DNA of 64,000 bases, from NCBI GenBank assembly GCA_030272585.1, contig BSYQ01000001.1:9005001-9069000 (forward strand), in the 5' to 3' direction. Made by a program: the position numbers and the translations under genes. The notes beneath the pieces were generated by a model. That model saw only the letters and a list, made by a program, of their open reading frames with translations, was not told where the DNA came from and did not search any database. The DNA comes from Bryopsis sp. KO-2023 (Eukaryota > Chlorophyta > Ulvophyceae > Bryopsidales > Bryopsidaceae). Positions 5,780 through 61,625 of this stretch are shown here, piece by piece; position 1 is the stretch's first letter; every line of letters starts with the position of its first letter.

Positions 5780-6799
5780 ATGGTTGAGTTTGGTGGAGGA
5801 GTCAAAGCACTGTTGGAGGAGATTAAAAAGAATGCTGGAGCGATCGAGGGAGTGTCGGAAAGGATCAACAAAATGCTGGAGGAGTACCTGAAGGAAGGAA
5901 CCAGACTGGAAAGAATCCAAGAAAGAGATGAGCAGGAGGCCCTGGAAAAAATGGCAAAGCTGGAGGAGGAAAAAGAACAACTCAAGCAAAAGATCGGCGA
6001 GCTGGAAGAAGAAGGGGGATTTCAGGCGGAAAGAGATAGCTGGGAGGCTGAACGCACTCGGTTGCTCGACGACCGGGCGAAATATTTGGCGGAAAATGAG
6101 GACCTCAGCGTAAAATTGGCGATGGCGGAAACTTCAGCGGACGCGGCGAAAAGAGAGGCGGAAAAGCTGCTGATGGAGGGGGCAGATGAGGAAATGCGCC
6201 ACAAGCTCGACGGGGTCGAAGACAAGCTGCGGGAAGAGCAAATGCGGAACCAACAGCTCAAGGGCCAGGTAGACTTGTTGAAGAGTATGGTGGAGTCCAT
6301 GTCGGGAAAACCAAGCGGAGAAGTGAAGCACGAAGAGGGGGAAAAACACACTTGCGTGTTTTGTCGCACCCCAAGCAGCAACTGTCAGCCGACCGGAGAA
6401 GACTGCCAACGGCACTGGGTGTGCTCGAATATCGGGTGTCGGGATCGGGTGTGGCTGAGTATCAGTCTGGAAGTCGATGAGGAAAAACGAGACTGGCGGA
6501 GAATGTGGGTACCAGCTGAAACAGGGCCACCAATGGTGCTACACTCGGAAACCTGCAAACTCTGCGCCTTGGGTTTCAAGTTGGGGTCGGATTATACTCG
6601 GGGAGTGTATTTAAAGGCCAAGCGGACCGTGGGCCCCCTGAGAAAATTCGAGGCAGCCGAAGACGATGCAGAACCAACGGACTACGATGGGGATTGGGTC
6701 GTCAATGAGCCAGGCGGAGACAGTGGACCAGAAGGAAAGAAAAGGAAACCTCCTGGAAGTTCAGGGGGATCCAGAAATGTGAAACTCAGAAAAGCCTGA
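5780..6799 (+). CDS. ORF3, coiled coil plus RING-like zinc module (A/H family)
   Basis: A 339-residue ORF in the env position between pol and the PPT. I chose the ATG at 5780 because it follows the pol stop (5664); an upstream ATG at 5639 lies inside the chromodomain. Residues 1 to about 180 are a charged, heptad-rich coiled coil. Then comes a Cys/His array: C192-x2-C195-x13-C209-x2-H212-x2-C215-x4-C220-x38-C259-x2-C262. The C-terminus is acidic, then basic (KKRKP; KLRKA), possibly a nuclear signal. No signal peptide or membrane segment is visible, so it is not an ordinary envelope protein. The metal-ligand spacing resembles a RING-type cross-brace but the fold is inferred. Function is unknown; similar ORFs sit in elements B, C and G. 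Confidence 0.8.
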   Translation: MVEFGGGVKALLEEIKKNAGAIEGVSERINKMLEEYLKEGTRLERIQERDEQEALEKMAKLEEEKEQLKQKIGELEEEGGFQAERDSWEAERTRLLDDRAKYLAENEDLSVKLAMAETSADAAKREAEKLLMEGADEEMRHKLDGVEDKLREEQMRNQQLKGQVDLLKSMVESMSGKPSGEVKHEEGEKHTCVFCRTPSSNCQPTGEDCQRHWVCSNIGCRDRVWLSISLEVDEEKRDWRRMWVPAETGPPMVLHSETCKLCALGFKLGSDYTRGVYLKAKRTVGPLRKFEAAEDDAEPTDYDGDWVVNEPGGDSGPEGKKRKPPGSSGGSRNVKLRKA

Positions 6800-7302
6800 G
6801 TTGAATATTAAAAAAAATAAAAAATATATATAGGATCAAGAGTGAAATATGATTTTCTGTTGGTAATTGGGTGTTTGAATTTTATTTTGTTTTTGGAAGA
6901 AAAAGGAAAAGAACAGTGAATGGATCAAGTGAGGGTAGAGGGAATTTCTGGAAAACAATTAACATACTGAGTGTGTAAAAACACTTGTGAGAATTACAGT
7001 TTGACTAGAGCTGAGACTGTGTGATTTCCAGTGTGGGCTGTGAAGTCTATTGAACAGGGTTGGGTTTATGTGTGAACGGGCTGGGATGGGATGTCACAGC
7101 GGCAGAAGTAACCATAAGCAGAAACCAACATTCAGCTCAAGTCGCAATCGGGAAGTTGTTACGGAAAACGTCGGAGAATATTGCTTACAGCTATATCAGA
7201 GGTATTCTCAGAATAAGCGAGTTAAGTCACTCGGCAGTTCTGGTGAAGTCGTGCAATACGAACTTAGTGTACAGAACATCGCTGGGTCAGCGATCTCTCT
7301 CT
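6800..7302 (+). other. 3' untranslated part of element A
   Basis: Non-coding DNA between ORF3 and the polypurine tract. It starts with an AT-rich stretch (6806-6835) and holds no frame with recognisable content. Confidence 0.6.
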
Positions 7303-7315
7303 AAGGGGGGAGGAG
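7303..7315 (+). other. Polypurine tract, element A
   Basis: AAGGGGGGAGGAG directly abuts the TG of the following LTR, the expected site for plus-strand DNA priming. This marks 7316-7885 as a 3' LTR rather than a solo LTR. Confidence 0.85.
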
Positions 7316-7885
7316 TGAAACGGCTGACTTAGTAGGCGAAGATCTAGGCGGAAAACAGAGGTTACAGTCTGAGAGTTCCAGGTAGTCGCGGACTGACTGG
7401 AATGGGGTAGTTACGTGATGCTCAATGAGAGGCTGAAACGTAGTGAAAAGAGTTCGAACCAGGTTCAGTATATTCAGTGTCAGGTCTCAGATGGCTGAGA
7501 GTTTGGGTAGAGAGTCGGGAGTCAGACTGGAAGGAGCTTCAGTCTGGGTCCTTAGTCTAGAGGTTATCAAGGGTTATAAAGGGTTAGTCGGAGCTCTGGC
7601 TAGAAGGGCTGAGCTGAGAAATGATAGAGACGTTTTGGGGAGAGCTAGATGATAGCTAGTATTTGTAAGGTTAGGAGATGGGCTGGGAGTTTCTAGAAGC
7701 TCTGGGCTGAGAGTATAAAAGGCTGGGGATCGTTGTAAAGAACAAGCTTGTTGCAATAAGATTCAGTTGTATACTCTCGTGTCTCAGACCTTTCTTACAG
7801 AACTTCTGGTCGTCTCCCAACGTGTGTGAAGAACGGGTTAAGTGGCGGCTGGAAGTATTCAGCCTCAGGAAACAAATCCGTTTCA
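7316..7885 (+). repeat. 3' LTR of element A (H family, 570 bp)
   Basis: It begins TGAAACGG and ends CCGTTTCA, so its termini are inverted repeats. Length and sequence match the LTRs at 46633-47202 and 50203-50773 with only occasional substitutions (for example GTTGCAAT for GTTGAAAT). A TATA box (TATAAAA) lies at 7714-7720. The DNA after 7885 is not element sequence. Confidence 0.93.
7714..7720 (+). promoter_or_regulatory. TATA box in H-family LTR
   Basis: TATAAAA, kept at the same place in the LTRs at 47031 and 50601. It is the likely core promoter for the genomic RNA. Confidence 0.6.
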
Positions 7886-10255
7886 CCTCGAGTGGGGCCA
7901 CTCAAAGCGGCCAAGGCGACTTGAATGAAGACGGGACGAAGACACCAGTCAAAGAGTACCAGTGCTGGTTGAACTATACTGCAAGAGTTTCGCTTGTTTG
8001 AAAAGAGAACGTTTACGTCCAGAGGTCGCCGAGTTGTGTACAAAGTATCTGAGGACATATACAGGAATCTGTGTTATTGGGCGTGAAAATGCCAACACAG
8101 ACCGTCAAGGTTTTGGTTGGTGCTGAACCGCATTGCTGGTAGACTACGTTGTTTTGTAGTGACGAACGTTTGGTTGACGATGGAATTTTCTGTGAGGTCG
8201 CTATGACGAAGAGAAAAGAAAAGAAAAAGTGGTTGGCCGAAAAGAAAGAGTTTTGGCTGAGAAAATGTTGCTCTGCGGAAAAGAACAGAACAGAAGGACG
8301 ATACATCGTTACTCACAGCCTGTGAGGACGTTTTGGTTTTGTCTGGCATTGTCTGTTGCCCTTGTTATTGGAGTAAGGTTTTTCTGGTCGTTTCAACTCG
8401 GCCGTGAAAAAGAAGGCCGATGAGAAAAAAAAAAAAGTTTGTCCAAGGGGAACAAGCCAGTCTACCATAGGAAAAAAAGCCAGCCGAGTCTTATTCTGGA
8501 GGCGCATGGACTATTCAAGCCAAAACAAGGCTCATGTACCACGGACGTGGACAACCCAGGACGAGAACGACCCAGGAGACCTCGTCCAGGCTTCAAGGAC
8601 GTCGATGACCAGCGACACACAGACGTACACGTGACCAGAGGAACGAGGACGGGAATATTTGAACGTCGGACCAATTACCTCGGACCGTGCCTCATGACGA
8701 TTCTCGTTGTAAGCACGAGCAGCCAGGAACCTGTGCGTGCGTTAAGGGGTACAGGTCCACGGCCGGAAACATCAAAACGGCCAGGGCCACTGCAAAAAGA
8801 GGACCGTGTTATGTGCATGCTGACACCACCCCAAGCAAGCGGACGAAGTTGCTCCAGCCATGAACGAAGCGCCGAGGAGTTCTGTATATTTCTTTGCTGT
8901 GCTGCAAACGTCACAGTGGACCACTGTCGATACCACTGGAAATAATGGTCGAGCTATCAAAATGAGCGACGAGACAACGCTGTACAAAGAAGGGTACTTG
9001 TCTCTGAAGCGGACGGACCGCCTGAAGAACTACACTACCTGGCCGCACTGAAGCAGGCACCTCCAAGAAACGATGTCCATGCGACACCATCCTCCATTAA
9101 CGAGCTCATTGCGGCCAAAAGACAAAGGACCATCGACATATCATTACACCAATGAACCATGGCCGCAATAACAAAGCAAAGAACTCAGGGAAGATGAGGT
9201 CGGAACTTGGTGGCGTGGAAGGTAAAAAGAGTTCTCTCAGCAACAAATGGCGGTACACTATGCAACGATGCCTGAAGCTTGAAGAGCCTTGCGTGCAATC
9301 CATGGAACAAGAAATGCGCATGCAAAGAGGACGATGCACAGTGACTGAGAGGACAAAGCAAGGAGGAACGGAGACCGGGAGGACGACAAGGGAAAAACAA
9401 CAAAAAGGTTAGGAGGGTGACCTGGGGAAAGTTATCACGAGAGAGAGTGTTACAGCTCCGTGGGTTATGAGCTGTGTAACGAACTGAGGGTGGGGCGATA
9501 GACACACACGAGCACACTTGAAGGGAAAGATAACTTACAGAATAAACTAACGTTCGAACCTAGCACAGAGCCCTCCTTGTAACCTCTGTAGTACAATCGT
9601 ACTCTGAGGTGACCCCTGTACTATCCCGTACTACCAAGTCAGACATGCAGCTGTCTGTACCACACATGCGCTACAAACGCCGCCTCTTATCTAGTAAATC
9701 GTCCCGACTCTAAATAAGAAGATTGTCTGCTTGGAATGGTCAAATAAATTCAATAAACAATTCAATCATTTCCAAATCATAAAACTGTAATCAAACTAAA
9801 ATCCCCCAACCTTTTGATTCCCCTAGAAAACCCACCCCAGTTCCACTCAACGACCCCGAACACCCATCACTGTCTCTGACGGTCTTGCGCGGCTACCACT
9901 GCGTCCACAGCATACTCTAGCTCCTTGCGCGCTCCAACAGTCCGCCATATCGACGGTGGTGTTTCTGATCCAGTACCTCCAAACTCCTCTGCAGCAGTCC
10001 CCACAGTCGGCTGTTCACGCTAGCGGGATAACCGGTGTCTGCTCAGTCCTTCCCTTTAGCGCTAGGTAAACGTCCACCAAGACTGTCCCATACCAGCCCC
10101 AGTGGCGGTGCTGCCACCGGCCAACTGAAATCAGCGGATATGCTGAGAGTTTGTCGGCTCCTCGTTGAGTTCCACTTATTTCAGAACTGGTTTAAGCTCC
10201 CCTCGCCCACTGTCCGCCACTTGTTCTCGACGACGATAGATGTCCTTCCCAACAT
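7886..10255. other. No recognisable gene
   Basis: This 2.4-kb stretch lies between the 3' LTR of A and integrase fragment J. Reading frames reach about 170 codons (8439-8945) but show no domain. The part from about 9540 to 10255 lies downstream of the J integrase on the minus strand and may include its 3' end. A minus-strand G-rich run (GGTTGGGGGATT) near 9803-9815 could be a degenerate PPT, but I see no matching LTR. Confidence 0.5.
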
Positions 10256-13286: not shown

Positions 13287-16200
13287 TTAGGCTGTCGGCG
13301 GCGGCGGTGGTGGTGGTGGTGGCGGTCCTCCCTGACCTCCGCGACAGTGCTCCGGCGGCTCTCCTCCTGCTGCTGGATCGTCTGGACCTTCGTCTTCTCG
13401 GGGCCGCTTGGTTGCGCTGCCTCTCTCCAGGGGGATCTCGTCAGGGAACGGCCGACGGAGCTCGGGGTATCGCCCCCACATCTCCGCCGTCAGCGTGCGC
13501 CAGTATGCCGTCGTTGGGAAGTTTCTGGCTTCCGCTTCGCATCGCCAGCAGCGATTTTGGAAGACTTCGTCGGCGGTGATGCCAGGGCGATACTCCGGGA
13601 TCCATGAAAGGTCCGCCGCCGGGATGTCCCCCAGCGTGAGTTCGCGTCCGCGGCAGAAGAGGTCGGGGCGCCGCAAGGCCACGAGGATGGCCAACACATC
13701 CTTGGCACACGCTTTCCAGGATTTTCCAAAGCGGTCTCGCGAGCAGTGTCGGTGGTGCCCGGGTGTGTTAGCAAACTTACAGGCGGTTGGGATGTACGCG
13801 TTGGAGCCGGGCGGTTTTGAACAACGGCTGCAACGCGTACCCATCCCTGGAGTGCCGCCGCCGCTGCTCTGGCCGTGCTGTCCCTTTCCATCACCCGGTG
13901 CTGTTCCGTCTGGGGGCCCTTCGTCCTCGCCAGTCTCCGTATCCGTTCCTGAAAAATCCATGGCGACCTTCTTGAGCTTCCCTTTTCCTGAGGCGAGTCT
14001 AGTGGTTGGGCCCTTCCTTGGCGCTCCTCCCTTCGATGCTGGAGTCCCGCTTTGGCTTAATCCCGGGGTAGTTCCTGTGGGAGTTCCTGCTCCGAACGCG
14101 AATGGGGCTTGGACATTCTGGAACATCTGGAAGGGGCGTGGTGGCCGAGGTCCCGCCATGGGTGGAGCTGGTGGTCTGATTGGCCCTGGTGGCAGCAAGA
14201 CGAGTTGGGAGGCTGGAGGCACTTCCTCCGTCGTTGGGAGTTCAGCTGGTGGATCCTGGGGTCCTGCTTGCTCCGCTTGGTGGGCAAACGGAACTGGATC
14301 AGGTTCCTCCACACGAGGCTGTGACACCCTCTCCTCCCATCCTCTCCGGTAATGCATCCCAGGCAGCGGCTGGTGTCCCGCCAACGATCGATCTCTTTCC
14401 TCCCTCTGCACCTCCGCCCATTCCTGAGCCGACAGTGGCTGTGGATGTGGTGGGCTTCCTGGGATCACATCAGCTGGAGCTGGGGGTTCATCCTCTGGTG
14501 TTGTTGGCTGCTCCTCCCCCACTTTCTCCCCAGTCCCTGCTTCACTCCCAACCAATCCTGAGCCTTCCCCCACTGTGGTTTCCTCATGCTGCCCTCCTCC
14601 TGTGGCTGCTGTTGCTGCTGTAGCTGCTGTTGCTGCTGTTGATCCCTCCAGACCTCCTTGTCCAGGCTGATGGAGTGGCTGTTCTCCTGTTAATGTTGCT
14701 GTAGCTTCCTCCAAGTCTTCTGGACCCAACTGAGGAGGTGGCTTTCCTCCTTCCCCAATGTCCCCAGCCTTGAGGTTTTTCGCCGTTTTCTTTCGTGGGT
14801 GGCTGCTTCGGGGGTGTAGCGATCCTTTTTCCTTCCCCGTCAGTTCCGCGATTCGATCCTTCTGGCGATCCAAGAGGTCCGCCATCTTCTTCATCCGCCT
14901 CCGTTGTTGCTCCCATTGATTCCACGGCACCATGTCGCAGGTAGCCTGCGACCCCTGATCCCGCTGCTCTTCTTCGTCGGTTTGGGTGGCAACATTCTGG
15001 GTTTCCGGCTGGGTCATATGGCTCGCAAGGATCGCCGCAAAGTACGCGGCCACTGCATCAATTTGCAGCTCCACCGGCAGATTTCGGAAGGTGGCCGGGA
15101 GTTCTACTGGTGGAGGTTGTGATGGCCCGGCTGCTGGAAAGGCGATCTCCACCATGGGCTCGCTGACCAACTCCTCCACTGTCTCCTCCTCCTGCAATCC
15201 ATATTCCGCCTCCAAATCTGCTGTATCGAGGCTGCCGGATTCAGCCATGGGTGTGTCGTCATTTCCTTGCCCTGGTTGATTTCCGCCACCCCTTTGCGAT
15301 GATCCACTGCCCCCTCGCTCTGGCTGATCGCCGCCACCCTCACGTGCGCCACCGATTGGCCCTACTCCGCCTCCGCCACTACTCAACACGCCGCATATGA
15401 TGGCCAGGAAACATACGAATCGGAACATGGTCGCTGGGCTCTCGAAAAGTGCAAATTCGTCTAACAATTCGCCGCCGCTGTCGGGTTTTTCTGCACTTCC
15501 GCCACGAGACTCCTCCACGTCCGTCCTCTCAATGAGGCGACACTGTACCCTGTCCACAGTCCATGCATCCCTTGGGGTCTGACCCACCTTTACCAAATCC
15601 CCACGTAATTCCTGGACCATCCATGGCCCCTGATTGAATTCCATCTCCTTGGGGTGGTAGGGGAACCGAGTTGAGCACAACATCACCATGTCCCCTACTT
15701 TCAGTTCTGCTGGAGCTTTACCCCGCCTGATCGTCTCCCAGAGGTGCCCCAGCTGCTGTTTGACCCTTGCTTTCTGCAAGGCTCTGGCAAGACTCCCCTC
15801 CTGAGCTTTCCTCTCCTCATTCATAAACCTCAGGGTGACCTGGCGCTGCAGCTCCACTGCATCTGCCCGGCGTAACTCCCCTCGCAATTCTGCTAAGCGT
15901 TCATTTCGTTTGGTTTTGGTGGAAAACTCCCGGAAAAACAATGCCTTGGCGGGGCTGAGTCCGGTGGAGGTGTGTTCCCTGGTGTTGATAGCATAAATCA
16001 CCTCCTGCAGTTTCTCCGGCCATTGGGGCGTGATCCCGCCGCCACACTCCCTCCGCAATAGTTGTTGTATCTCCCGGTTCATTCTTTCGACCAGCCCATT
16101 GGTCTCCGGGTGGTATGGGCGTCCTTTCCTCAGCTGGACTCCCCACTGCTGTAGAAGTTCTGCCACCTCTCCTTCGAATTCACTCCCGTTGTCTGTGATG

Positions 16201-16805
16201 ATGGAGGCGGGCGGTCCATATGGATGGAACACCGAGGCCTTCAGCCACGCCGCCACCGCAGAACTCCTCTTACTCGTTAATGCCCCGGCGATCGTCCACT
16301 TGGTGAAGTAGTCTACCATGACTATCACATATTTTTCTCCCGTTCCGGTGGTGGGCAGGGTGATCAAGTCCATACCCAGTCTCTCCCAGGCTCTTAACGG
16401 TATATGCTGCCTTAATGGGTGTCGTTCCTTAGGCGCTTTCTGACTTCTTCTGCAGCTGTGGCACGTCTGCCACACTTGTTCTACCTCTTTCCTTATATAT
16501 GGCCACCAGTATCTCTGCTGCACTTTCTGGCACAATCCTCTGCCGCCGATGTGCGCATTTTCTCTGTGGACTTTTCGGACCACAGTTGGCCTTTGCTCCT
16601 CTTTTGGCACCTCTAGCCATTCTCCTTGTTTACTCAAGCACTTGAGTGGGTGTAGATCTCCTCCCACCCATCGATATCTCTGACCCCTTTTTCGCACCCT
16701 CGCTTTTGCTTGTTTCTCAGCGGGTAATGCCGTTGTTTTCAAGAATTCCATCAGTTCCGCATCCGCCCATGGATCCATTCTCCTTTGACCTCCTCCTTTG
16801 ATCAC
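13287..16805 (-). CDS. Integrase fused to ORF3 (element G)
   Basis: 1172 codons from a GTG at 16805; the first ATG is ten codons on, at 16778. Residues about 60-460 are integrase: an H-H...C-x2-C finger (VHRENAHIGG, CHSCRR), the DDE core (MDLITLP, ITDNGSEFEG, TNGLVERMNRE) and a C-terminal domain without a chromodomain. From residue 460 a hydrophobic stretch (MFRFVCFLAIICGVLSS) begins a 713-residue tail: Gly/Pro/Gln-rich regions, a short coiled coil near 628-660, then C992-x2-C995-x13-C1009, His at 1017, 1018 and 1020, C1021, C1033 and C1086-x2-C1089, followed by KRPRE near the end. Elements A, B and C encode a similar module as a separate ORF. The frame matches that of RT-RNase H but three stops lie between. 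Whether the fusion protein is made or cleaved is unknown. Confidence 0.85.
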   Translation of the reverse strand: MIKGGGQRRMDPWADAELMEFLKTTALPAEKQAKARVRKRGQRYRWVGGDLHPLKCLSKQGEWLEVPKEEQRPTVVRKVHRENAHIGGRGLCQKVQQRYWWPYIRKEVEQVWQTCHSCRRSQKAPKERHPLRQHIPLRAWERLGMDLITLPTTGTGEKYVIVMVDYFTKWTIAGALTSKRSSAVAAWLKASVFHPYGPPASIITDNGSEFEGEVAELLQQWGVQLRKGRPYHPETNGLVERMNREIQQLLRRECGGGITPQWPEKLQEVIYAINTREHTSTGLSPAKALFFREFSTKTKRNERLAELRGELRRADAVELQRQVTLRFMNEERKAQEGSLARALQKARVKQQLGHLWETIRRGKAPAELKVGDMVMLCSTRFPYHPKEMEFNQGPWMVQELRGDLVKVGQTPRDAWTVDRVQCRLIERTDVEESRGGSAEKPDSGGELLDEFALFESPATMFRFVCFLAIICGVLSSGGGGVGPIGGAREGGGDQPERGGSGSSQRGGGNQPGQGNDDTPMAESGSLDTADLEAEYGLQEEETVEELVSEPMVEIAFPAAGPSQPPPVELPATFRNLPVELQIDAVAAYFAAILASHMTQPETQNVATQTDEEEQRDQGSQATCDMVPWNQWEQQRRRMKKMADLLDRQKDRIAELTGKEKGSLHPRSSHPRKKTAKNLKAGDIGEGGKPPPQLGPEDLEEATATLTGEQPLHQPGQGGLEGSTAATAATAATAATGGGQHEETTVGEGSGLVGSEAGTGEKVGEEQPTTPEDEPPAPADVIPGSPPHPQPLSAQEWAEVQREERDRSLAGHQPLPGMHYRRGWEERVSQPRVEEPDPVPFAHQAEQAGPQDPPAELPTTEEVPPASQLVLLPPGPIRPPAPPMAGPRPPRPFQMFQNVQAPFAFGAGTPTGTTPGLSQSGTPASKGGAPRKGPTTRLASGKGKLKKVAMDFSGTDTETGEDEGPPDGTAPGDGKGQHGQSSGGGTPGMGTRCSRCSKPPGSNAYIPTACKFANTPGHHRHCSRDRFGKSWKACAKDVLAILVALRRPDLFCRGRELTLGDIPAADLSWIPEYRPGITADEVFQNRCWRCEAEARNFPTTAYWRTLTAEMWGRYPELRRPFPDEIPLERGSATKRPREDEGPDDPAAGGEPPEHCRGGQGGPPPPPPPPPPTA

Positions 16806-44144: not shown

Positions 44145-44532
44145 TGATACGAACGTCCGTCGTATGACACGCGGTTCGGCCCACTCACCCAACACGTGGT
44201 TCGGCCTGACAGTAGTCGGACCGAACCAGCTCACCATCATCATAGTCACACATTAAGGGAGAGGTCCAGGCCGCCTCTGAGGTGGCAACCCTCAGTTCGG
44301 CCTGGAGCCTCACATTCAGCTTAGGGTCCATTAGGACACGGCCAAGGGGCCATTAGAACGCTGAGTTGGATGAAAGGGTTGGACAGGCTGTCGGCCCGGC
44401 CGAATACTTATTCGGCCCGGACCACAGCCTCATTGTAACTTGGACTATTGTAAAGATCCTTGTTTGAGAAAGTCTTTCCGTGCTCTAGACGTAAGTCCAC
44501 TCGACTAGTCTATTTGTTCCACGTTTGTATCA
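44145..44532 (+). repeat. 3' LTR of element B (388 bp)
   Basis: Matches 27247-27634 without visible differences and is followed by CCCAC at 44533-44537, after which the E pol frame resumes. Confidence 0.94.
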
Positions 44533-52134: not shown

Positions 52135-52563
52135 TGTTAGTCTTTTAGCGCTATACGAGGTAGTTTGGGATAGAGCCGAGGGTGGCTGACGCATGTGGGT
52201 TCGCGAGTAAGACAGATTAGACCCAGAGTTTGGGGCATGCGTCAGCGTACTACACTTAGGGGTACTTAAGAGGCCCACTCGTTGTTTTGACATTCTTATT
52301 TCACTTTACTTTGTAAGAACTCGGGATTCGTGGGATTGGTGTGTTCCCGCTTGTGTGTGTGTTTGTGTGTGTGTGTGTGTTAAGTGTTTGCCTGACGCAA
52401 TCACTTCCCAACCCAAGTGCTCTAGCAGCGTTCACAACCGCGCTAGCTAGAGAGTTGTCTAAACCAACAAACCCCACAAGTATACTTGCGTTAGCCAGCA
52501 AGTTATCACGAATCCAATCAACACAGCCGACCACTATTGCGTCACCCACAAGCTTCACTATCA
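52135..52563 (+). repeat. 5' LTR of element C (429 bp)
   Basis: TGTTAGTC...CACTATCA. Contains a GTGTGT run. Identical by eye to 61821-62249. Confidence 0.95.
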
Positions 52564-52708: not shown

Positions 52709-55363
52709 ATGGCTGACCGTGAACACGCATTGGCAGTGCGCGAGCCTCAAGTTGAAGAGCCAGGAATTGAACCTGAGTTCGATGAGGAATTGCCTGACGC
52801 ACCCAATGTTGTGTATCAACAAATAAACGTCCAGAACATCCACAATGTCCAGCAAGCAGCTGTCGACATAGACATGGGAGCTGATGCGGAAGCCTTAAGA
52901 GAGGATGTGGATGCGGTCCATGACCGTGTGGACGATTTAGCCCACGGGCTAAGGGGTCACCTGCAGCAAGTTGACCAGACACTGGGGCAGAGGCTAGCCC
53001 ATGCTGAGGCCTCTGTGTCGAACCAACTGGCTGGCGCATCAGAGGTGATCGGGCAGGCGCTGGAAACACAGCACCAGCATGCGCAACAGGTTGAGGCCAC
53101 ACAGCATGCGGTGGTGTCGCAACAGCAGAAGCTGGATTCAGTAGCGGCTCAACATAGTCGATACGAGCAGAGGCTATTACGCCAAGATATCGACCATAGG
53201 AAAGAAAGAGCCGAGATCAAAGCTTCTGTGGACGCAATAACGAGGAGAATGGATGCCGCAGACATTCTAGCGGACTCTCGTTTTGCTGACCTAAAAGAAG
53301 CAACTGAAGCATCAGCACTTCAGTTAAAACAACTCTCCGAGTTATCCCTTGTTCAAGGGCGGAGAATTGAAGGCTTATTAGGAACTGTTGCGGATTCCAA
53401 CGAAAAAGTCGAACGGACTCTAGAATTGTTTCGGGAGTCCTTGCATAAGCAAGGTGCGGAGGTGAAGCGTTTGCAGAGCTCCAGAGTAGCAATTCAAAAA
53501 GATTTGATTGCCTTGGAGAAAAAGGCATCCAAAACCTGGGATCAGCAGCAAGATGCAGCTGATGTAGTTGCCTTAAGATTATCTGGCCTGGAACGAAGCA
53601 TGGAGGATGTGAGTGGCGGAAGTCAGAGTGCCCAAAGTGGAAGTGATGCTCGTGCAGTATCACCAGAGCGAGAAGAATCAACTTCTCCTGAGCCTGAGGA
53701 CTCAGCCTTTGGGATGCCGCTGCCGAAGAAATCAGTAAAGCAGTTGGCTGCGTCATGGCCGCCACTAGACCAGAGCTTCGCGGTAGGAATGGTTGGGGCA
53801 GGAACCTCAACAATACCGGCTCCTCCAGCAGTACAGGTCGAGGAGGGTGAAATTGTTGCTGCAGAAGCACCACCATGCACTGCAGTGGACAGCGCACCAG
53901 ACGCTGATTTCACATTCCCTCAGTTGATACCTCCAAGTACAAGAGCTCAGCCTGGAGTACGCATCTCAGAACCCGACTCTGCCGATGGATCACGTAGACC
54001 CACACGAACTAACCCAAGAGTTCTCTCCTCAGCAGAAGTGTTATATCAAATTGACCTTGAGCGTGCTAAGGCACAGGTCAGAGAAGAGAAAGGAAAAGAA
54101 CCCATGCAGATCCCCACACGTACTGGAAGATTGGGACTTGGGTTAAGTGCATTGGGAGCAAGGGTAGAAAATAATCCCTTTGCTGCACTTGGTTCATATG
54201 AGTCTACTGGTGGACCCAGTCGAGTTCCTCGCATTCGAGGTAACTTTGGAGACCCTGGTGATGACGATCCAGATGATGATGGCGGTGATGATTACCGCGA
54301 CAGGCGAAACCGCCCACCTTCCCGCATTCCAGGTGCGCCTGATGGCGGAGGAGGTGGTGGCGGCGGTGGAGATGGTGGAGGCGGTGGACCTCCCGGTGGA
54401 CCTCCTGATGGAGGTGGAGGTGGAGGTGGCGCTGGACCAGCAGGCCCAGGACCTCCTAGGCAAGGACAGTGGTTGCCTAGCACCGTCAAGTTGCAAATGC
54501 CTCGCGCATTTAACGGAAGTGGAGAACCAAAAGCCCGTAAATGGCAAGTGCTCATGACGCGGTACTTGAGAACCTGCGGAGTGCATGAAGCACAGTGGCA
54601 ATCGATTATGGCCACTAACCTTTATGGGGCTGCCTCGGATTGGTTAACGATGCAAGAGTTGAAAATTCACCGAGGTGAAAGACCACCCTTCCGTGACTGG
54701 ATGGACTTCATGGATGGCTTAGCTACAGCTTTCGAATTCTCTAGTGATCGAGATGAAGCGTGGCGTGACCTCCATAAACTCAAGCAGACTGGAACCGTGA
54801 AACAGTTCGTTAAAGAGTTTCAGCGGTTAGTTTTGAGGATTCCAGACCTCGAAGAGGATCACCAGTATTTGCTCTTCGTGGATGGACTTAAAAGTGAAGT
54901 TCAGAAGTTAGTCGCTGCAACGGTACCTCGAGATGTCGAGGCCGCCATCATATCCGCCGAACGATTGGAAGCCCTTGGAGTTGGAACACAAGGCCAAGGA
55001 GGGCAAACCAATCAGAAAAAGAAAGGAGTCTGGCGTGGTGGAAGAAAGAAGAAAGGCCAGAATCAGGGTCAGCAGCAGCAGAACCCCACACCACCAGCCC
55101 AAGCACCACCACAAGCTGCCGCAGGAGTGCAACAGCAGCAGCAACAGCAACAAGGACGAGGAGGAGGACGTGGTGGTGGTGGTGGACGTGGACGCGGTGG
55201 TGGTAACCGTGGAAGAGGACAAGCCAATCAGGGAAGACAGAACCCCCAGGGGGGAGGGGGATATCATTGTTATCTTTGTGGAAAGAAGGGTCACCCTGTG
55301 AGGCAATGTCCTAGATTGGAGGAGGTGAAAAACCTCCCCGATGTAAAAAAAATGTTAAACTGA
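52709..55363 (+). CDS. Gag (element C)
   Basis: 884 codons from the first ATG after a 131-bp leader. Near residue 34 is QQINVQNIHNVQ, matching a motif in the B and F Gags. Residues about 55-300 are coiled coil. An acidic, Pro-rich region and Gly runs precede the capsid (VKLQMPRAFNGSGEPKARKW, about 592; DWMDFMDGLATAFEF; VKQFVKEFQRLVLRIPDL). A Gln/Gly/Arg-rich tail leads to a CCHC knuckle (CYLCGKKGHPVRQC). The coding end carries an A run suitable for -1 slippage, and the pol frame is open through the gag stop. Confidence 0.94.
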   Translation: MADREHALAVREPQVEEPGIEPEFDEELPDAPNVVYQQINVQNIHNVQQAAVDIDMGADAEALREDVDAVHDRVDDLAHGLRGHLQQVDQTLGQRLAHAEASVSNQLAGASEVIGQALETQHQHAQQVEATQHAVVSQQQKLDSVAAQHSRYEQRLLRQDIDHRKERAEIKASVDAITRRMDAADILADSRFADLKEATEASALQLKQLSELSLVQGRRIEGLLGTVADSNEKVERTLELFRESLHKQGAEVKRLQSSRVAIQKDLIALEKKASKTWDQQQDAADVVALRLSGLERSMEDVSGGSQSAQSGSDARAVSPEREESTSPEPEDSAFGMPLPKKSVKQLAASWPPLDQSFAVGMVGAGTSTIPAPPAVQVEEGEIVAAEAPPCTAVDSAPDADFTFPQLIPPSTRAQPGVRISEPDSADGSRRPTRTNPRVLSSAEVLYQIDLERAKAQVREEKGKEPMQIPTRTGRLGLGLSALGARVENNPFAALGSYESTGGPSRVPRIRGNFGDPGDDDPDDDGGDDYRDRRNRPPSRIPGAPDGGGGGGGGGDGGGGGPPGGPPDGGGGGGGAGPAGPGPPRQGQWLPSTVKLQMPRAFNGSGEPKARKWQVLMTRYLRTCGVHEAQWQSIMATNLYGAASDWLTMQELKIHRGERPPFRDWMDFMDGLATAFEFSSDRDEAWRDLHKLKQTGTVKQFVKEFQRLVLRIPDLEEDHQYLLFVDGLKSEVQKLVAATVPRDVEAAIISAERLEALGVGTQGQGGQTNQKKKGVWRGGRKKKGQNQGQQQQNPTPPAQAPPQAAAGVQQQQQQQQGRGGGRGGGGGRGRGGGNRGRGQANQGRQNPQGGGGYHCYLCGKKGHPVRQCPRLEEVKNLPDVKKMLN
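55345..55351 (+). promoter_or_regulatory. Putative -1 frameshift heptamer, C gag-pol
   Basis: A AAA AAA in the gag frame, part of an eight-A run (55345-55352), ten bases before the gag TGA at 55361. Pol is in the -1 frame and open from here. Confidence 0.65.
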
Positions 55364-58300
55364 CCGCCAGGCAGGAAACTGCTTCGTCTGAGCCTGGCCG
55401 ACGCAAACGTCGTAAGCGAAACAGAGTTCGTAGGCGGCGTAGGAAGCTAAGATCAAAAGTAGGTGCCTCGAAAAAGGTTAAAAGTACTCACAGCGGAAAA
55501 CCTGAGGAGCGGACTAGTACACCGCGTGAAGAGAGAACAGAGACACTCTCCACATCTACCCAATCGGCACATGACAACTGCGATTGGAAAAATGAACAGA
55601 AGGAAAGCACACCGGATGAGGTGGACGCGCCTCATGCGTCATCTGCATCTCTTCCCTCTGTTAGTGAATCTGTGGGCTCATTGGAGTCGCAGAGTAGTCT
55701 ACAGGAGTCCCTGCCTGCAGACGTAGACGATAGTGGGTCAGAAACAACCCAGCGGTCTACCACAGAGCGAGTTAATGTGTCAGAAGTTCGATCAACTTCG
55801 TCAACCAAGGGTGACACATGCCCTCTGTTAAAAATTCAAGAAGTGCCTGTGAGAGGGTACGAAGTAAAAGCACGGATCAAGACCACGGACCTTTATGCAT
55901 TCATTGATTGTGGAAGTACTGCAAACTATATCAATGATAAGGTAGCGCGTGATCTCGGGTTGTCGATTACACCAAGCTCAAAGAGAGCAATGTTGGCAAA
56001 CGGAGATATTAAAGAACTGGCTGGCAGCTGTAACAACCTCCGGGTAAAGATAGGAGGGCTGAAGTGCAAAATGAAAGCGGATCTGTTCCCAGACCTTGGT
56101 TATGACCTAATATTGGGCATGCCTTGGTTGCAGAAAGAAAACCCCCGCATAGACTTTCAGCAGAATGAGATTTCAGTTTGCAAAAACAGCCAAGTGTTTC
56201 ATCTCCCGTTGCGTCATCCAACCCAAGAGAGTATTGAACCTGAACGAAAAGTACAGTCGATACTGCAAGAAGTGCCAGTGACTGAGTGTTCAGCTAAGAG
56301 AATGATGCGTCATCTCAAAACAGAGACAGCATTCATGGTTATAGTGCAAGAATCTGAAGAGAAAGCTTTAGGCCAACATGAATTGCCTGACGCAATAGAG
56401 CGAACACAGCCATTCAACACTGAGGATGAGATTGGTAAACTTATTCGTTCTGACACCCCTGCCGAAGTTAAAAAGGTGGTAGAAACACACCGTGGTGTGT
56501 TCCCTCGTGATTTACCCCCAGGGATCCCTCCGAAGAGAAAAGGTCATGAGTTTAAGATAGACCTGGAGGATCCAACACCTATCCATCGTCCAATATACAA
56601 GCTTTCACCAGCAGAGCTGGATGAAGTGAAAGCACAAGTGGACTACCTTCTGGAACAGAAGAAAATCAAACCATCCGAGTCCCCTTGGGGCGCGCCAATC
56701 CTATTTGTACCGAAAAAGGATGGAGGCTTAAGGATGTGTGTGGATTACAGGTGGATCAATAAGGTGACGGTGAAAAACCGGTATCCTTTACCCCTGCCAG
56801 AAGAATTGATGGATAGAGTGTTCAAAGCCAAAGTGTTCTCGAAGTTAGATCTGCGATCAGGCTATTGGCAATTTCCAGTAAGGCCATCTGATACAGATAA
56901 AACAGCGTTCCGCACGAGATACGGTCACTTTGAGTTTTTGGTAGCGCCTTTTGGGCTAACCAATTGCCCAGCGCAATTCCAAACTCTAGTGCAAGACCTA
57001 CTCGCAGAGTTTTTAGATGATTTTGTTGTTGTCTTTATTGATGACATACTCATCTTCTCTGAAAACATGGAACAGCATGCCGAACACTTAGAGAAAGTCC
57101 TGTCGCGACTAGCAGAATATCAGCTTTTTGCTAAGGCAAGTAAAAGTGAGCTGGCTGTCGCAACAGTAGACTATCTTGGCTACCGCATTAGCGGAAGTGG
57201 GTTAAAACCACAGGAACAAAAAGTGAAGGCAGTGAAGGAGTGGAAGGAACTACAGAGTGTTAGTGATGTACGTAGTTTCCTTGGAATGGTTTCATACTAC
57301 AGGAAATTCATTCCCCAGTTTGCACATGTTGCTGGACCACTCCATGACTTAGTGAAAAAAGACCATCCCTGGAGATGGGGACAGGTTGAGCGTGGCGCAT
57401 TCAATGAACTGAAAAAGCGTTTAAGTCAAGCTCCCGTCCTTATTTTTCCAGATGCGTCACTGCCTTACACTGTGATCACTGATGCGTCGAATGAGGCCAT
57501 CGGTGCCGTGTTAACACAGGATCACGGAGAGGGGCTACAGCCAATAGCTTACCTCTCACGTAGATTCAAGCCTGCCGAGCTTAACTATGCACCATACGAC
57601 AAAGAGTTGTGTGCAATATGTTATGCGATGGTGCAGTGGAGACATTATCTAGAAGGTTGTGCGGGTGGAGTAACAGTGTTCACTGACCACCAACCTCTGA
57701 CACATATTCTGTCGCAGAGGAACCTTTCTAGAACCCAAGCAAGATGGCTTGAGGCGGGGTACCTGACTTCGATCAACCCCAAGATCTCCTATATCAAAGG
57801 CAAGGCTAATGTGTTAGCAGATGCTCTCTCCCGCAGTGTTCCTAAGCCCGTGGAAACTGCGATGAACATTTCCACTTGGCAAGTGCATCAAGCAAGCCAA
57901 GACGAGTGGAAACAAGCCCTCCAAGCTGATAACTCCTTGGTGAAGATATTACGGAAGCTTGAGAGTGGCGAGGAAGTTGAGGGATATTTCCTCAGAGAGG
58001 GAATACTCTGGACGGTCCCAAAGAGAGGATTAGTCGAGAAAGTGGTGGTTCCTAAAGGCCAGCGCAATAAGATTATGAAGGAGTGCCATGAGACACCTTC
58101 AGCCGGCCATACAGGACCAGCGCGAACAGGAGAAATCCTAGCGCGGCGATATTGGTGGAAGGGGTGGATGAATGAGTTGAAGGCATTTGTTCGCGAATGC
58201 CCTGTGTGCCAACAAATAAAGGCTGACACACAGAAGCCTATGGGCTTACTTCAACCCCTGCCAATACCTGAGCGGAAGTGGGAGCAGATTACCACTGACT

Positions 58301-59361
58301 TGGTGACAGATCTACCAGCATCCAATGGGTTTAGTGCTGTAGCTGTTTTTGTCGATAGACTTACCAAGTTTGTGCATTTCGCCCCATGTACTAAAGAGAT
58401 TACCGCTGCAGGATACGCCCAACTTTTTATCGAACATGTTTACCGCAACCATGGCCTACCTAAAGTGATTGTGTCTGATAGAGACCCTCGCTTTACCAGC
58501 AAGTTCTGGCAGACGCTTTTTAAAGCTCTGGGTACAGAGATTCGTATGAGTACAGCTTACCACCCTCAGACGGATGGGCAGAGTGAGGTTACCATACGTA
58601 CTCTGGAAAATTTCTTAAGGCCATATGCTGAGAGGTATCCCCATAAGTGGGTTGAGTATTTACCTACAGCAGAGTTTGCAGCAAACAATGCAGTGAATGC
58701 GAGTACAGGGTTCGCACCTGCATACTTGATGTATGGGTACCATCCAGAAACACCAAACATTGGTGGGACGGCAACGCAATTTCAAGTGGAAGCAGTTAAG
58801 ACTATGGTAGCACGGATGGCACAGGACTTAGATACCGCAAAAGCATATTACTCTAGAGCACAACACAGAATGTGTGTGAGTGCAAACAAGAAGAGGAAAG
58901 ATATTGCTTTTGAGAAAGGGGATAAAGTCCTGATAAAAAGCCGTTTTATTCCGTTGGCTGCTTTGAACAAAGTGAGTCCCAAACTGCGCCGTCGATTTGT
59001 GGGTCCCTTTGAAATTGTGGAGAAAATATCAAAGGTGGCGTACAGAGTTCAACTTCCGGAAACATGGCTTATTCACCCAGTGTTTCATGTTTCTAAGTTC
59101 AAGCGTTATCACGCCTCGAGTGATAACAGCAGGCAGATACAACCTCCAGAAGGAGAGTTGATTGGTAGCGAAGTAGAGTATGAGGTCGAAAATATCCTAA
59201 GGGCTAGAGGTAAACGCAATCGTGAATACCTAGTGCTGTGGAAAGGATACGATCTACTTGACGCTACTTGGGAACCTGAAGCTAATCTGGTTAACGCACC
59301 AGATATACTTCGCGCATTTAAAGAGAAAGAAAGAAAAGAGTTGCAGAAAGGAAGAGAATAG
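55352..59361 (+). CDS. Pol (element C)
   Basis: Open in the -1 frame from the slippery A run; the first ATG is at 55621. A basic linker (RRKRRKRNRVRRRR-like) precedes protease (AFIDCGSTANYIN, near 55900, Cys in the DTG position). RT: ESPWGAPILFVPKKDGGLRM, catalytic FIDD at 57037-57045, RSFLGMVSYYRKFIPQF. RNase H: VITDASNEAIGAVL, YAPYDKELCAICYA, VLADALSR. Integrase: finger CHETPSAGHTG and CPVCQQIK; core TTDLVTDLP, VSDRDPRFTS, TDGQSEV. Then PFEIVEKISKVAYRV, VFHVSKFKRY and a chromodomain (VEYEVENIL, YLVLWKGYD, ATWEP). No break is visible. Confidence 0.95.
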
Positions 59362-59810
59362 GGAAACAGAGTGTTTGATGGCTAAGGTGGAACTCCTTAT
59401 AGCAAGGGGGCGCGAAAAAGGATACCTTAGAAAAACTCTGTCGACTTCCAAACCAACTCTTTAACTTTAATGCGTTAGGTGCCTAAGTTATTTGGCTGGC
59501 GCAGTAAGTGTAGCTTCAGTAGTACTTTAGAAACCGGGCAAACGATGTCACATTCGAGATAGTGTGGTTGTTCCGAGAAAACCCCTATCAAGTGACGTGT
59601 TGAGGTGGTCTTGACGAGACTCCAACCGAGCAAAACGTTGGTGTCTCACCCCAATAACCCAACGAGGAAAGTGTACGAGTCACCCAGCCTTATAAGCGCA
59701 GCCCTCGAACCATTTTGCCCTAGTGTTTGTGTAAACGGAGCGAGCTCCTGAGTGAAAAAGAGTCTAAAGACGCACAAACCGTTGTTATTTCTTTCTTTCC
59801 GACAAACATA
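59362..59810 (+). other. Pol-ORF3 spacer of element C
   Basis: 449 bp without a supported ORF. It contains TATAAG at 59691-59696, about 115 bp before the ORF3 ATG, a possible internal promoter. The alternative is a spliced subgenomic RNA. Confidence 0.5.
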
Positions 59811-61625
59811 ATGGCTGCCGACACACCCGCCGCAATTATTGCGAGGTTGGAAGCGGAGGTAGCTCAAAAAGAAGAGGAGCTGCAGCACTTTGTTACGACC
59901 GCAGAGGAGGTGCTGCAGAACAATGAGGCCTTAACCCGGCAGCTCACAGAGTTGAGTGACCGGACGAAAGCAGCTGAGGCTGCGAAGGAGGCAGCGGAGA
60001 AAGCCAAGGATAAGGCGGAGGCGGAAAAGAAAGAAGCGGAGGACAAGACTAAGGTCTTGGAGGAAAAATTGGAAGCCATGAAACTGAAGAAACAGCGGCT
60101 CCAATCTCACATGATGGCTAACCATCGTGAGAATGACCTCCGCAAGCAAGCTCTCGGGGGAATAGTGGATCGATTTACCGCGGTAGAGGAAACGCTGCAG
60201 CGAGCTGTAGCAACCGCGTGGAGTGCAGCAGCCAACAACCTTAAGAAGGAATTGGCAGAACAAGAGCTGCAGATCGATTTGCTGGGAGAGTCCCTCAGAG
60301 ACGGCTCTGAAAAACTTCAAGTGCAGAGCGAAACAACGGACAAGATGCTGCGTTTGAACCCGGCGGTACCAGCACCACGGGTACGCGAAGAACTGGATCG
60401 CCAAGTCCAAGTTCTGTTGTCAAACGCAACACTTGATCTGGAACCGTCCAAGGACGATGATGCGGGAGGCTCAAGCAAGGGCAAGGGGAAAGGGAAAAAC
60501 AAACGTCCAAGCTCGCCGTGTAGGGATGAAGATCCACACGGAAAGAGAAGGCGAGAGGACGGTGACGATGAAGGTGGTGAGCCACCGAGGGATCGTATGC
60601 CTGGAGATGCAGCAAGAGCCAACTTGTTACTCAAGTTAAAGGCTGCCGCATTAAAAACTCCAGCACCCTCACAACCAGCACCAACAGTTCAGACTCCCGG
60701 AGATGAGGCTACCGCAATAGCACCGGGGGAGGACTTATTCGACATGAGAGAGGAGGAGCTTTTGGACTTGGATTTTAACGAAGAAATTGACTTCGGCAGT
60801 CCACCTCCTAGGCTCGAAGGTCCTAGTTCTGAACTGGAGGACGGGGAAATAAGGAATGATGAAAGGCCAAGCCAGGTGACAGAGGTTCAGCGTGCGGTCC
60901 ATCCACCGTTGGAGTTAGCTCCAACAGAAGCAGCACTTCGGGCTTTCCGAGAAAAGGTTAAGCTCAGAAGACTAAAGGCGGCTGCTCAAGACAAAGTGGA
61001 TGCTGCACCCAGCGAAGTGAACCTGTCACGGGAGGATATCGAGGAGGCTTGCAACCCCATCACTGCGTCAGAGAAATGGCCGAAGGTCCAATATACTAAC
61101 CCCAGGGACCGAGCCTTGCAAAATTACCGCGGCAACCGGCACTTTCACGAGTTGCCCATGTGCATTTGGTGTGGGAGAAGCCCAATGCAAGCAAGTGCTC
61201 AGCGGCTGACGCAGAAGAAGTATTCCGTCCTTCCTTGTGGGTATCACCTTGTGTGTGATGCTCATTGGTTGGCATACTCGATGCTGGGGCGCATCGTCAC
61301 GGCGGTCCAAAAAGTCGCAGAAGTGGACAACAAGTCCATCGCCACCGTCTCCCCATTCTCTCTACCTGCCCATATGTTGAAGCTGACACGCTCGACGTTC
61401 GAAGAAATCCCTCCGTTCCCGGCTGAGCACGAGAAGTTGCCACACTGCAACATGTGTGTGAAGCGGCAGCTCAAGGTGTCCGGCATCACAAGGGATCTGC
61501 CATTCCTTAAGTCCAAGAGGGTGGCTGCCGCATTTGATCCCTGTGTCCGGTATCGTGCCGTGCAGCAAGCGCATGCGCAAGAGCAGCGTGCTATTCAGCA
61601 AGCGCAAGCGCAGGAACAGCGTTAA
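59811..61625 (+). CDS. ORF3, coiled coil plus RING-like zinc module (element C)
   Basis: 604 codons from ATG 59811 (MAADTPAAIIARLEAEVAQK); an earlier in-frame ATG at 59727 is less likely because the coiled coil starts at the later one. Residues about 8-190 are coiled coil. A basic/acidic stretch (KGKGKNKRPSS, GKRRRED, near 225-250) may be a nuclear signal. Acidic segments follow (EEELLDLDFNEEIDF). Near the C-terminus: C451-x2-C454-x21-C476-x2-H479-x2-C482-x2-H485-x60-C546-x2-C549. That is the order of ligands in a RING-type fold, with His at position six and a long last loop. The protein ends in Gln/Ala-rich repeats (QQAQAQEQR). No signal peptide or membrane span. The ORF is intact in a copy with identical LTRs. 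Confidence 0.85.
   Translation: MAADTPAAIIARLEAEVAQKEEELQHFVTTAEEVLQNNEALTRQLTELSDRTKAAEAAKEAAEKAKDKAEAEKKEAEDKTKVLEEKLEAMKLKKQRLQSHMMANHRENDLRKQALGGIVDRFTAVEETLQRAVATAWSAAANNLKKELAEQELQIDLLGESLRDGSEKLQVQSETTDKMLRLNPAVPAPRVREELDRQVQVLLSNATLDLEPSKDDDAGGSSKGKGKGKNKRPSSPCRDEDPHGKRRREDGDDEGGEPPRDRMPGDAARANLLLKLKAAALKTPAPSQPAPTVQTPGDEATAIAPGEDLFDMREEELLDLDFNEEIDFGSPPPRLEGPSSELEDGEIRNDERPSQVTEVQRAVHPPLELAPTEAALRAFREKVKLRRLKAAAQDKVDAAPSEVNLSREDIEEACNPITASEKWPKVQYTNPRDRALQNYRGNRHFHELPMCIWCGRSPMQASAQRLTQKKYSVLPCGYHLVCDAHWLAYSMLGRIVTAVQKVAEVDNKSIATVSPFSLPAHMLKLTRSTFEEIPPFPAEHEKLPHCNMCVKRQLKVSGITRDLPFLKSKRVAAAFDPCVRYRAVQQAHAQEQRAIQQAQAQEQR

What the first reader, a model, noticed from the sequence alone, without database searches (positions are those of the whole stretch)
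5780..61625. A recurrent env-position ORF3 with coiled coil and RING-like zinc array in four gypsy families
Families H/A (5780-6799), B (42371-43594), C (59811-61625) and G (tail of 13287-16805) carry the same architecture after pol: a coiled coil, acidic and basic low-complexity segments, then C-x2-C, C-x(2-8)-H-x2-C and C-x2-C. Outside the Cys/His positions I see little similarity, so the module is old and kept or was gained repeatedly. The order fits a RING-type cross-brace. If so, these elements would encode their own ubiquitin or SUMO ligase, or an adaptor, in place of an envelope gene. Chromoviruses usually lack any gene there.
Basis: partly seen in the sequence, partly recalled or inferred. 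Interest (0 to 1): 0.88.

Follow-up and report, generated by a model that had tools for sequence, protein, structure and literature searches.

The report
Shared zinc protein in algal transposons
Several kinds of jumping gene in a green seaweed carry an extra, selectively maintained gene for a coiled-coil, zinc-type protein; because unrelated kinds of jumping gene share it, it probably helps them deal with their host rather than acting as a virus envelope, but what it does has not been tested.

Summary
The observation largely holds. ORFs after pol in families A/H, B and C encode a predicted coiled coil, basic patches and a C-terminal Cys/His array; G (minus strand, fused to integrase) has an array with other spacing and a weak coil signal. 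The genome is inferred to be Bryopsis sp. KO-2023, a green alga. They are not one uniform module: A-type and B-type are separate sequence families, C is a weak candidate relative of B, G its own type. Both main types also occur outside gypsy: A-type genes lie on both sides of a Helitron Rep-helicase in 5 of 5 copies, and a B-type and an A-type gene accompany a KDZ-like ORF in 6 of 6 copies, without detectable gypsy gag, pol or LTR debris in the sampled loci. Ligand order resembles RING, but Pfam and profile comparison with host RINGs do not support it; models were inconclusive. A, B and C have no transmembrane segment. Best reading: a nuclear zinc accessory protein exchanged between transposon classes, perhaps anti-silencing. 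The module is well supported; its function is inferred.

The parts
4885..5664 (+). Family A/H: integrase C-terminal end with SH3-like domain and chromodomain, 116 bp before ORF3
   Evidence: Pfam SH3_Tf2-1 5e-16, Chromo 3e-9
5780..6799 (+). Family A/H ORF3, 339 aa (A-type): coiled coil, KKRK patch, C-terminal array
   Evidence: 52 of 120 matches full-length without stop; omega 0.19 and 0.33
6353..6565 (+). A-type Cys/His array: C192-x2-C195, C209-x2-H212-x2-C215-x4-C220-x-D222-x2-W225, C259-x2-C262
   Evidence: these positions invariant in alignments of five A-type proteins; omega 0.04 and 0.23
7312..7886 (+). Family A/H 3' LTR
27247..27634 (+). Family B 5' LTR
   Evidence: 100% identical to 44145-44532; TSD CCCAC
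28096..34172 (+). Family B gag and pol, pol cut near its end by nested element D
34113..41895 (-). Element D, complete chromovirus nested in B, without ORF3 (negative comparison)
   Evidence: LTR 100%, TSD TCAGG, 257 bp between pol end and LTR
42371..43594 (+). Family B ORF3, 407 aa (B-type)
   Evidence: 27 of 99 matches full-length without stop; omega 0.12 and 0.11
43094..43345 (+). B-type array: C242-x2-C245, C-x3-H265-x2-C268-x2-H271, C322-P-x-C325
   Evidence: RING-like spacing; positions invariant in nine proteins except the third Cys, which is shifted by one in part of them; omega 0.087 and 0.075
44145..44532 (+). Family B 3' LTR
52135..52563 (+). Family C 5' LTR
   Evidence: 100% identical to 61821-62249; TSD CTGAT
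52709..55363 (+). Family C gag
55621..59361 (+). Family C pol with chromodomain
59811..61625 (+). Family C ORF3, 604 aa
   Evidence: 73 of 73 scored copies span 1-603 or 1-604, one with a stop; 299 candidates; omega 0.20
61161..61457 (+). C array: CIWC, C-x2-H-x2-C-x2-H, CNMC followed by VKRQL much as in B-type
   Evidence: 7 synonymous and 0 nonsynonymous changes against L045 in this region
61821..62249 (+). Family C 3' LTR
13287..16805 (-). Family G integrase fused to an ORF3-like tail
   Evidence: tail: 38 of 56 matches full-length without stop
15363..15419 (-). Hydrophobic segment between integrase and the G tail, also present in the G relative L038
   Evidence: Kyte-Doolittle 2.00 (G) and 1.83 (L038) over 19 residues
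13539..13832 (-). G-type Cys/His array, spacing unlike RING
   Evidence: relative L038 at 27% identity, E 1.5e-6; omega 0.026 and 0.052

Best explanation
ORF3 is a transposon-borne accessory protein: an N-terminal coiled coil (self-association), basic patches that look like nuclear localisation signals, and a C-terminal zinc-type domain. It comes in at least two main sequence families (A-type; B-type, perhaps with C) plus a separate G-type. Both main types are shared between Ty3/gypsy retrotransposons and DNA transposons of the same genome: A-type with a Helitron and a KDZ-like element, B-type with that KDZ-like element. Shown: presence, purifying selection, the sharing, divergence faster than RT. 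Inferred: a protein useful to retrotransposons, rolling-circle and cut-and-paste elements alike acts on a host process common to all of them, most likely nuclear silencing. I propose that it oligomerises in the nucleus, binds its own family's DNA or a host silencing factor through the zinc domain, and keeps the family expressed, in the manner of VANC.
For: Helitron Rep-Pif1 ORF (Pfam 1e-42 and 2e-51) with an A-type match on each side in 5 of 5 copies, at nearly constant spacing. KDZ-like ORF with a B-type gene on the opposite strand and an A-type gene on its own strand in 6 of 6 copies. No match of gypsy gag, pol or LTR queries in the sampled stretches L022, L023, L024, L059. Homology: KDZ-borne B-type against gypsy L032 E 4e-37, 38% over 200 aa; A-type gypsy, Helitron and KDZ profiles 94.5-96.9% by hhalign, their reversed controls at most 4.5%. 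Selection: omega 0.08-0.33 in the four window families; 0.28 overall and 0.13 in the array between the two Helitron-borne paralogues at dS 1.1. Speed: ORF3 dN 0.48-0.91 where RT dN is 0.03-0.15 in five B-clade pairs. Basic patches by a loose pattern in 14 of 15 tails or ORF3s scanned (in L038 only in its integrase part), no membrane segment in the 13 that are not G-type. Non-coding tandem arrays in the Helitron and KDZ loci and in G; VANC targets are reported often to form tandem repeats (PMC5735166, abstract).
Against: No function, expression, zinc binding or localisation was measured. Elements B and C and the window part of A/H show no such non-coding array (in C only a 32-bp pair and a TG run), and I recall that such repeats are common in large DNA transposons anyway. 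No sequence similarity to VANC was tested. The KDZ assignment rests on matches below Pfam cut-offs (KDZ 4e-4, CxC5 1.2e-3). A- and B-types show no similarity to each other (hhalign 0.1-0.7%), so 'one module' may be two or three convergent ones. Ends of the Helitron and KDZ units were not determined. In the Helitron copy on C13 Rep is split and the upstream gene is found in pieces; in the KDZ copy on C9 the A-type gene is in two pieces.
Confidence: 0.4

Rival explanations
1. RING-type E3 ligase or adaptor: the array folds as a cross-brace and the protein marks a host restriction or silencing factor for degradation.
For: Ligand order C,C,C,H,C,[CH],C,C; B-type has RING-like spacing and ends in C-P-x-C; weak Pfam hits for B-type members, Prok-RING_4 0.019 (2 of 8), zf-RING_5 0.17 (1 of 8), Sina_RING 5 (2 of 8); the B model has a hairpin then a helix.
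Confidence: 0.17
2. Retroelement RNA factor: a nuclear oligomer with zinc finger that exports or packages genomic RNA, as CERV of Cer1 does.
For: CERV has a potential leucine zipper, a candidate KRKK signal and a Cys-rich region, and is highly divergent between species (PMC10309623, passages), much like ORF3.
Against: The same genes accompany Helitron and KDZ-like genes, elements without genomic RNA to package; D manages without.
Confidence: 0.12
3. Transposition cofactor: a DNA-binding zinc protein that directs integration or transposase to sites or ends.
For: G-type is fused to integrase; repeats near zinc genes in the DNA elements.
Against: Enzymes of the three classes are unrelated (established knowledge); chromodomains, present in A, C and D, already serve targeting in chromoviruses (PMC9289625 passage).
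Confidence: 0.15
4. Envelope-like gene, or a passenger gene without function.
For: Position after pol; G and L038 have one hydrophobic segment.
Against: No membrane segment in A, B, C; purifying selection.
Confidence: 0.04

Closest known systems
VANC anti-silencing proteins of Arabidopsis VANDAL (MULE) transposons
   Same: TE-borne accessory gene, related proteins with different target spectra, targets often in tandem repeats (PMC5735166 abstract; PMC13317346 passage)
   Different: In what I read VANC belongs to one DNA-transposon group; ORF3 types are shared by two or three TE classes; no sequence relation tested; no silencing data here
CERV of the C. elegans Cer1 retrotransposon
   Same: LTR-element protein with potential zipper, basic signal and Cys-rich region, highly divergent (PMC10309623 passages)
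   Different: possible C4-type finger rather than eight ligands; an LTR element only, in the passages read; RNA export role shown there, not here
RING finger domains
   Same: order and, in B-type, spacing of the eight candidate ligands
   Different: no Pfam, profile or structural support
Additional ORFs of plant Ty3/gypsy elements; plant mobile domain in both gypsy and MULE elements
   Same: precedent for accessory domains in gypsy, and for one domain in two TE classes (PMC9289625 passages)
   Different: other domains; [quoted passage not shown]
Giant KDZ and Sola transposons with accessory genes in algae
   Same: KDZ elements with extra genes (PMC12477816 passages)
   Different: zinc genes shared with LTR retrotransposons are not mentioned in the passages read; that paper also reports nested unrelated TEs in such elements, hence my debris check

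Membership tests
RING finger (E3 ligase) | eight ligands C-x2-C-x(9-39)-C-x(1-3)-H-x(2-3)-[CH]-x2-[CH]-x(4-48)-C-x2-C (recalled pattern) | tested here: inconclusive
   a slightly wider form is met by 7 of 7 B-type proteins tested and by 0 of 7 others including A, C and G (first gap 8-40, last gap up to 55)
RING finger (E3 ligase) | profile similarity to RING families | tested here: not met
   no Pfam match over cut-off; host RING profile at most 4.1%, positive control 96.7-99.0%
RING finger (E3 ligase) | cross-brace fold | tested here: inconclusive
   B model pLDDT 60, no PDB match; C model pLDDT 41; A and G not modelled
RING finger (E3 ligase) | E2 binding, ubiquitin transfer | not testable with these tools
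   needs protein work
Retroviral envelope | membrane segment(s) | tested here: not met
   A, B, C maximum hydropathy 0.70, 0.72, 1.01, none above 1.42 in the 13 non-G proteins scanned; G and L038 have one segment, 2.00 and 1.83
VANC-like anti-silencing factor | binding to own non-coding motifs and loss of methylation | not testable with these tools
   only indirect: non-coding arrays in Helitron and KDZ loci and G, not in B, C or the window part of A/H
VANC family by sequence | sequence homology | not tested
   no VANC sequence was compared; Pfam gave no ORF3 hit over cut-off
CERV-like RNA export factor | restricted to retroelements with genomic RNA (my criterion) | tested here: not met
   A- and B-types also with DNA transposon genes
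Ty3/gypsy chromovirus hosts (A, B, C) | PR-RT-RH-INT order, chromodomain, 5-bp TSD | tested here: met
   all met for C; A has the chromodomain end in the window and PR-RT in L046; B has order and TSD, its pol is cut before the chromodomain by D; relative L026 has one by Pfam, L060 by reading
Helitron (L022) | Rep-like N domain plus Pif1 helicase in one ORF | tested here: met
   PF14214 1e-42, PF05970 2e-51; ends not mapped
KDZ transposon (L023, L024) | KDZ domain and associated Cys cluster | tested here: inconclusive
   KDZ E 4e-4 and CxC5 E 1.2e-3, both below cut-off

The most novel reading that the evidence does not exclude
A shared counter-defence gene pool: in one algal lineage, LTR retrotransposons, a Helitron and a KDZ-like transposon have repeatedly exchanged the same fast-evolving coiled-coil zinc proteins that disarm host silencing, so that accessory genes move between TE classes as counter-defence genes move between phages.
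Probability: 0.35. Interest if true: 0.9.

Novelty: new variant of a known kind. Interest (0 to 1): 0.7.

Why it matters
Accessory genes of transposons are usually tied to one superfamily (general knowledge; plant mobile domain is an exception). A selectively kept protein family shared by retrotransposons, a rolling-circle and a probable cut-and-paste element in one genome points to a common host target, and gives a direct way to find how siphonous green algae silence transposons and how transposons answer. Intact copies are numerous and the window copies of B and C look young (LTRs 100% identical), so the test is practical in a cultured alga.

Tried and rejected
RING by profile: not supported, kept as possible. 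PDB by sequence: A3 0 hits, A4 three chance-level hits. Structures: B model pLDDT 60 with no match, C model pLDDT 41 unusable; A and G were not modelled. Relatives from other species: three searches of 5.8 billion proteins gave two proteins each, five of the six named Bryopsis sp. KO-2023 and one on a 1153-base 'Parasphingorhabdus' contig, presumably algal DNA; these searches need shared 5-residue words, scored about 8000 candidates each, and TE genes are often not annotated, so absence elsewhere is not shown. ORF3 swapped among B-clade elements: not shown, RT synonymous sites are as saturated as ORF3 in most pairs. L033/L034 'same ORF3, different pol' was a D-like pol beside L034, RT 98% to D. 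Nested gypsy debris as source of the zinc genes in Helitron and KDZ loci: no match at E 1e-3 (pol of B, C, D, G and L015, gag of B, C, D, LTRs of A, B, C, D, G; pol and gag end of A/H, gag of G, RT of E; only the fetched stretches L022, L023, L024, L059). Literature: in ten searches, of which I saw listings and, for five papers, outline or passages, nothing describes these ORFs; the library lacks most subscription papers and no nuclear-genome paper of this alga was listed. NCBIfam gave weak matches under cut-off, mostly to long coiled-coil proteins. Rfam 0.

Results against a uniformly low omega, or void: L033/L034 pol comparison is void for the reason above; L026/L029 omega not computable, L028/L029 is 0.48 overall (0.06 in the array), L023/L024 0.60 on 6 changes; L030/L031 pol 0.32 on 23 changes, higher than their ORF3 0.21. 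A C-to-KDZ-A-type profile match of 37% covers 18 columns only; I did not use it.


Full report
WHAT IS THERE. The four ORFs exist as stated, with G on the minus strand. B and C are complete Ty3/gypsy elements: LTRs 388 bp and 429 bp, each pair 100% identical, 5-bp duplications CCCAC and CTGAT, ORF3 between pol and the 3' LTR in the sense orientation. C has a chromodomain; the pol of B is cut near its end by a nested element D. D (34113-41895, minus strand) is a complete chromovirus without ORF3. Of the window copy of A/H only the part from the integrase C-end to the 3' LTR was found; a copy elsewhere (L046) gives its RT, 49-50% identical to those of B, C, D, 54% to E and 47% to G. In G, integrase and the ORF3-like tail are one ORF.

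THE GENOME. The window lies in a 91-Mb, 28-contig assembly. Five of six homologous proteins in the public database are named Bryopsis sp. KO-2023 and sit on contigs of 7414136, 1602149, 6213746, 7048199 and 3628164 bases, the lengths of contigs C4, C15, C7, C5 and C12 here. I infer that this is that siphonous green alga. The sixth lies on a 1153-base contig labelled Parasphingorhabdus sp. and is 93% identical to B; bacteria living with this alga have been sequenced as metagenome bins (PMC12509668, search listing with start of abstract only), so I take it as algal DNA.

COPIES. Full-length ORF3 copies without a stop: A 52 of 120 matches, B 27 of 99, G tail 38 of 56. For C, 73 of 73 scored copies (299 candidates) span residues 1-603 or 1-604 at 98-100% identity, one with a stop. 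The matches include distant families. Counts are lower bounds, as the tool states.

SELECTION. Nei-Gojobori omega of ORF3 against diverged copies: A 0.19 and 0.33, B 0.12 and 0.11, C 0.20, G 0.08 and 0.14; array region alone: A 0.04 and 0.23, B 0.087 and 0.075, C 7 synonymous and 0 nonsynonymous changes, G 0.026 and 0.052. Other families: of 11 pairs, 8 have overall omega 0.13-0.27 (one of them on nine changes); L028/L029 is 0.48 (0.06 in the array), L023/L024 is 0.60 on six changes, L026/L029 is saturated. In L015/L017 pol is 0.12 and 0.16 against 0.27 for ORF3; in L030/L031 pol is 0.32, on 23 changes, against 0.21.

HOW MANY FAMILIES. With relatives from the same genome, A-type (P0001, L015, L021, L022, L023) share eight invariant Cys/His plus D222, W225, P245 and G304 (a few more depend on the alignment). 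B-type (P0002, L025, L026, L027, L029, L030, L032, L033 and the minus-strand gene of L023) share C242, C245, R253, D257, H265, C268, H271, G274, R276, A278, R280, A281, C322, P323, C325, K327, W334, G336, K339. Profile comparisons of the array region: A with its Helitron and KDZ relatives 96.4% and 96.9%, these two with each other 94.5%, B with the L032/L023 group 99.8%, reversed controls at most 4.5%; A with B 0.1%. C with the L032/L023 group 40% (E 2.9e-4), with the rest of B-type 11% and with all B-type 22%, reversed controls under 0.3%; a similar K-x2-L after the last C-x2-C helps, but this is a candidate relation only. G matches no other type (under 1%) and has its own distant relative L038, again fused to integrase, E 1.5e-6 at 27%.

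BEYOND GYPSY. L022, found by its A-type gene, has upstream a 1386-aa ORF with Helitron N-domain (1e-42) and Pif1 helicase (2e-51). That ORF occurs nearly identical in five places, one of them in two pieces. In 5 of 5 an A-type gene lies downstream (1.8 kb in the four unsplit copies, 2.1 kb in the split one) and a second one upstream (7.0-7.4 kb; in the split copy this gene is found in pieces). The two genes differ at dS 1.1 with omega 0.28, 0.13 in the array and 0.39 outside it, so both were kept for a long time. L023 and L024 have a KDZ-like ORF (KDZ 4e-4 with Chromo 6e-4; the neighbouring ORF CxC5, 'associated with KDZ transposases', 1.2e-3; all below cut-off). One search gave seven matches: six places and one 29-residue fragment beside one of them. 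In 6 of 6 places there is a B-type gene on the opposite strand and an A-type gene on the same strand, the A-type gene in two pieces on C9; a seventh A-type copy, C8:4407038, has no KDZ-like match. The KDZ-borne B-type gene matches the gypsy-borne one of L032 at E 4e-37 and B at 2.8e-16. The A-type of the window matches the KDZ-borne and Helitron-borne ones at E 3e-4 and 1.5e-4, the Helitron-borne one matches the L015 group of gypsy copies at 8e-7, and the KDZ-borne one matches the Helitron-borne one at 9e-6; E-values are for one genome. No gypsy gag, pol or LTR query matched the four stretches checked. L015, L017 and L021 are gypsy elements whose RT is only 34-41% identical to the window RTs, yet carry A-type; they form their own clade, 100/100, in a midpoint-rooted RT tree of 15 rows. 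The occurrence beside three kinds of transposition gene means that A-type, and likewise B-type, has moved between elements (inference; direction unknown, the ORF3 trees are poorly supported).

SPEED. In five B-clade pairs RT is 82-95% identical while ORF3 is 32-49%, dN 0.03-0.15 against 0.48-0.91. L015/L021 differ less, 0.08 against 0.17.

IS IT A RING? The ligand order is RING-like in A, B and C, the spacing only in B-type. Pfam: best B-type hits Prok-RING_4 0.019 and zf-RING_5 0.17, under cut-off; no RING hit for A-type. Zf-C3HC4_3 finds 56 places in the genome (E up to 1), none at an ORF3 place listed (compared by eye). hhalign against 12 host RINGs gives 0.3-4.1%, although each of those 12 matches the other 11 at 96.7-99.0%; integrase H2C2, a non-RING control, gave 22%. 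The B model (three sequences, pLDDT 60) has strands 34-36 and 42-44, then a helix from 45, roughly where a RING would have them (recalled), but no match in the PDB. An ordinary RING is unlikely; a divergent one stays open; ligase activity is not supported.

MECHANISM. Inferred steps: coil-mediated assembly; nuclear entry through basic patches (a loose pattern finds one in all 15 scanned proteins, in L038 only in the integrase part, so this is weak); zinc domain binding DNA or a host factor; relief of silencing. The main argument is the sharing between TE classes that have no replication step in common. A supporting but weak hint is that the Helitron and KDZ loci and G carry non-coding tandem arrays, as VANC targets often do (PMC5735166, abstract); B, C and the window part of A/H do not.

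LIMITS. One genome; ends of the DNA elements unmapped; KDZ label tentative; heptad score home-made; no experiment.

Noticed in passing
G000 contig C2, many places between about 0.2 and 6.5 Mb: Many of the short or stop-riddled relics of these elements lie on contig C2, as if one chromosome keeps old debris (low recombination or weak purging). Not counted.
   Followed up: no
22180-23199 (minus-strand gag of G): About eight 90-bp tandem repeats encode a 30-residue acidic repeat in the G gag-protease ORF.
   Followed up: no
46633-48564 and 50203-52134: A 1.9-kb direct repeat (LTR plus start of gag of family A/H, 99.5%) flanks an apparently internally deleted A/H element, and element C is inserted at the end of the second copy with TSD CTGAT.
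   Followed up: partly
15363-15419 and L038: G-type integrase-ORF3 fusions have one hydrophobic, signal- or anchor-like segment between integrase and tail, unlike A, B and C.
   Followed up: partly
L023 3634-5235 (-), L024: In the KDZ-like element the B-type zinc gene lies antisense between the transposase-like ORF and the A-type zinc gene.
   Followed up: partly
L060, L061: A further chromovirus family, by reading of the B clade, with its own B-type ORF3.
   Followed up: partly
L016 and L034, just upstream of ORF3: Nearly the same short upstream sequence precedes an A-type and a B-type ORF3, perhaps the edge of an inserted element in both; RT next to L034 is 98% D.
   Followed up: partly
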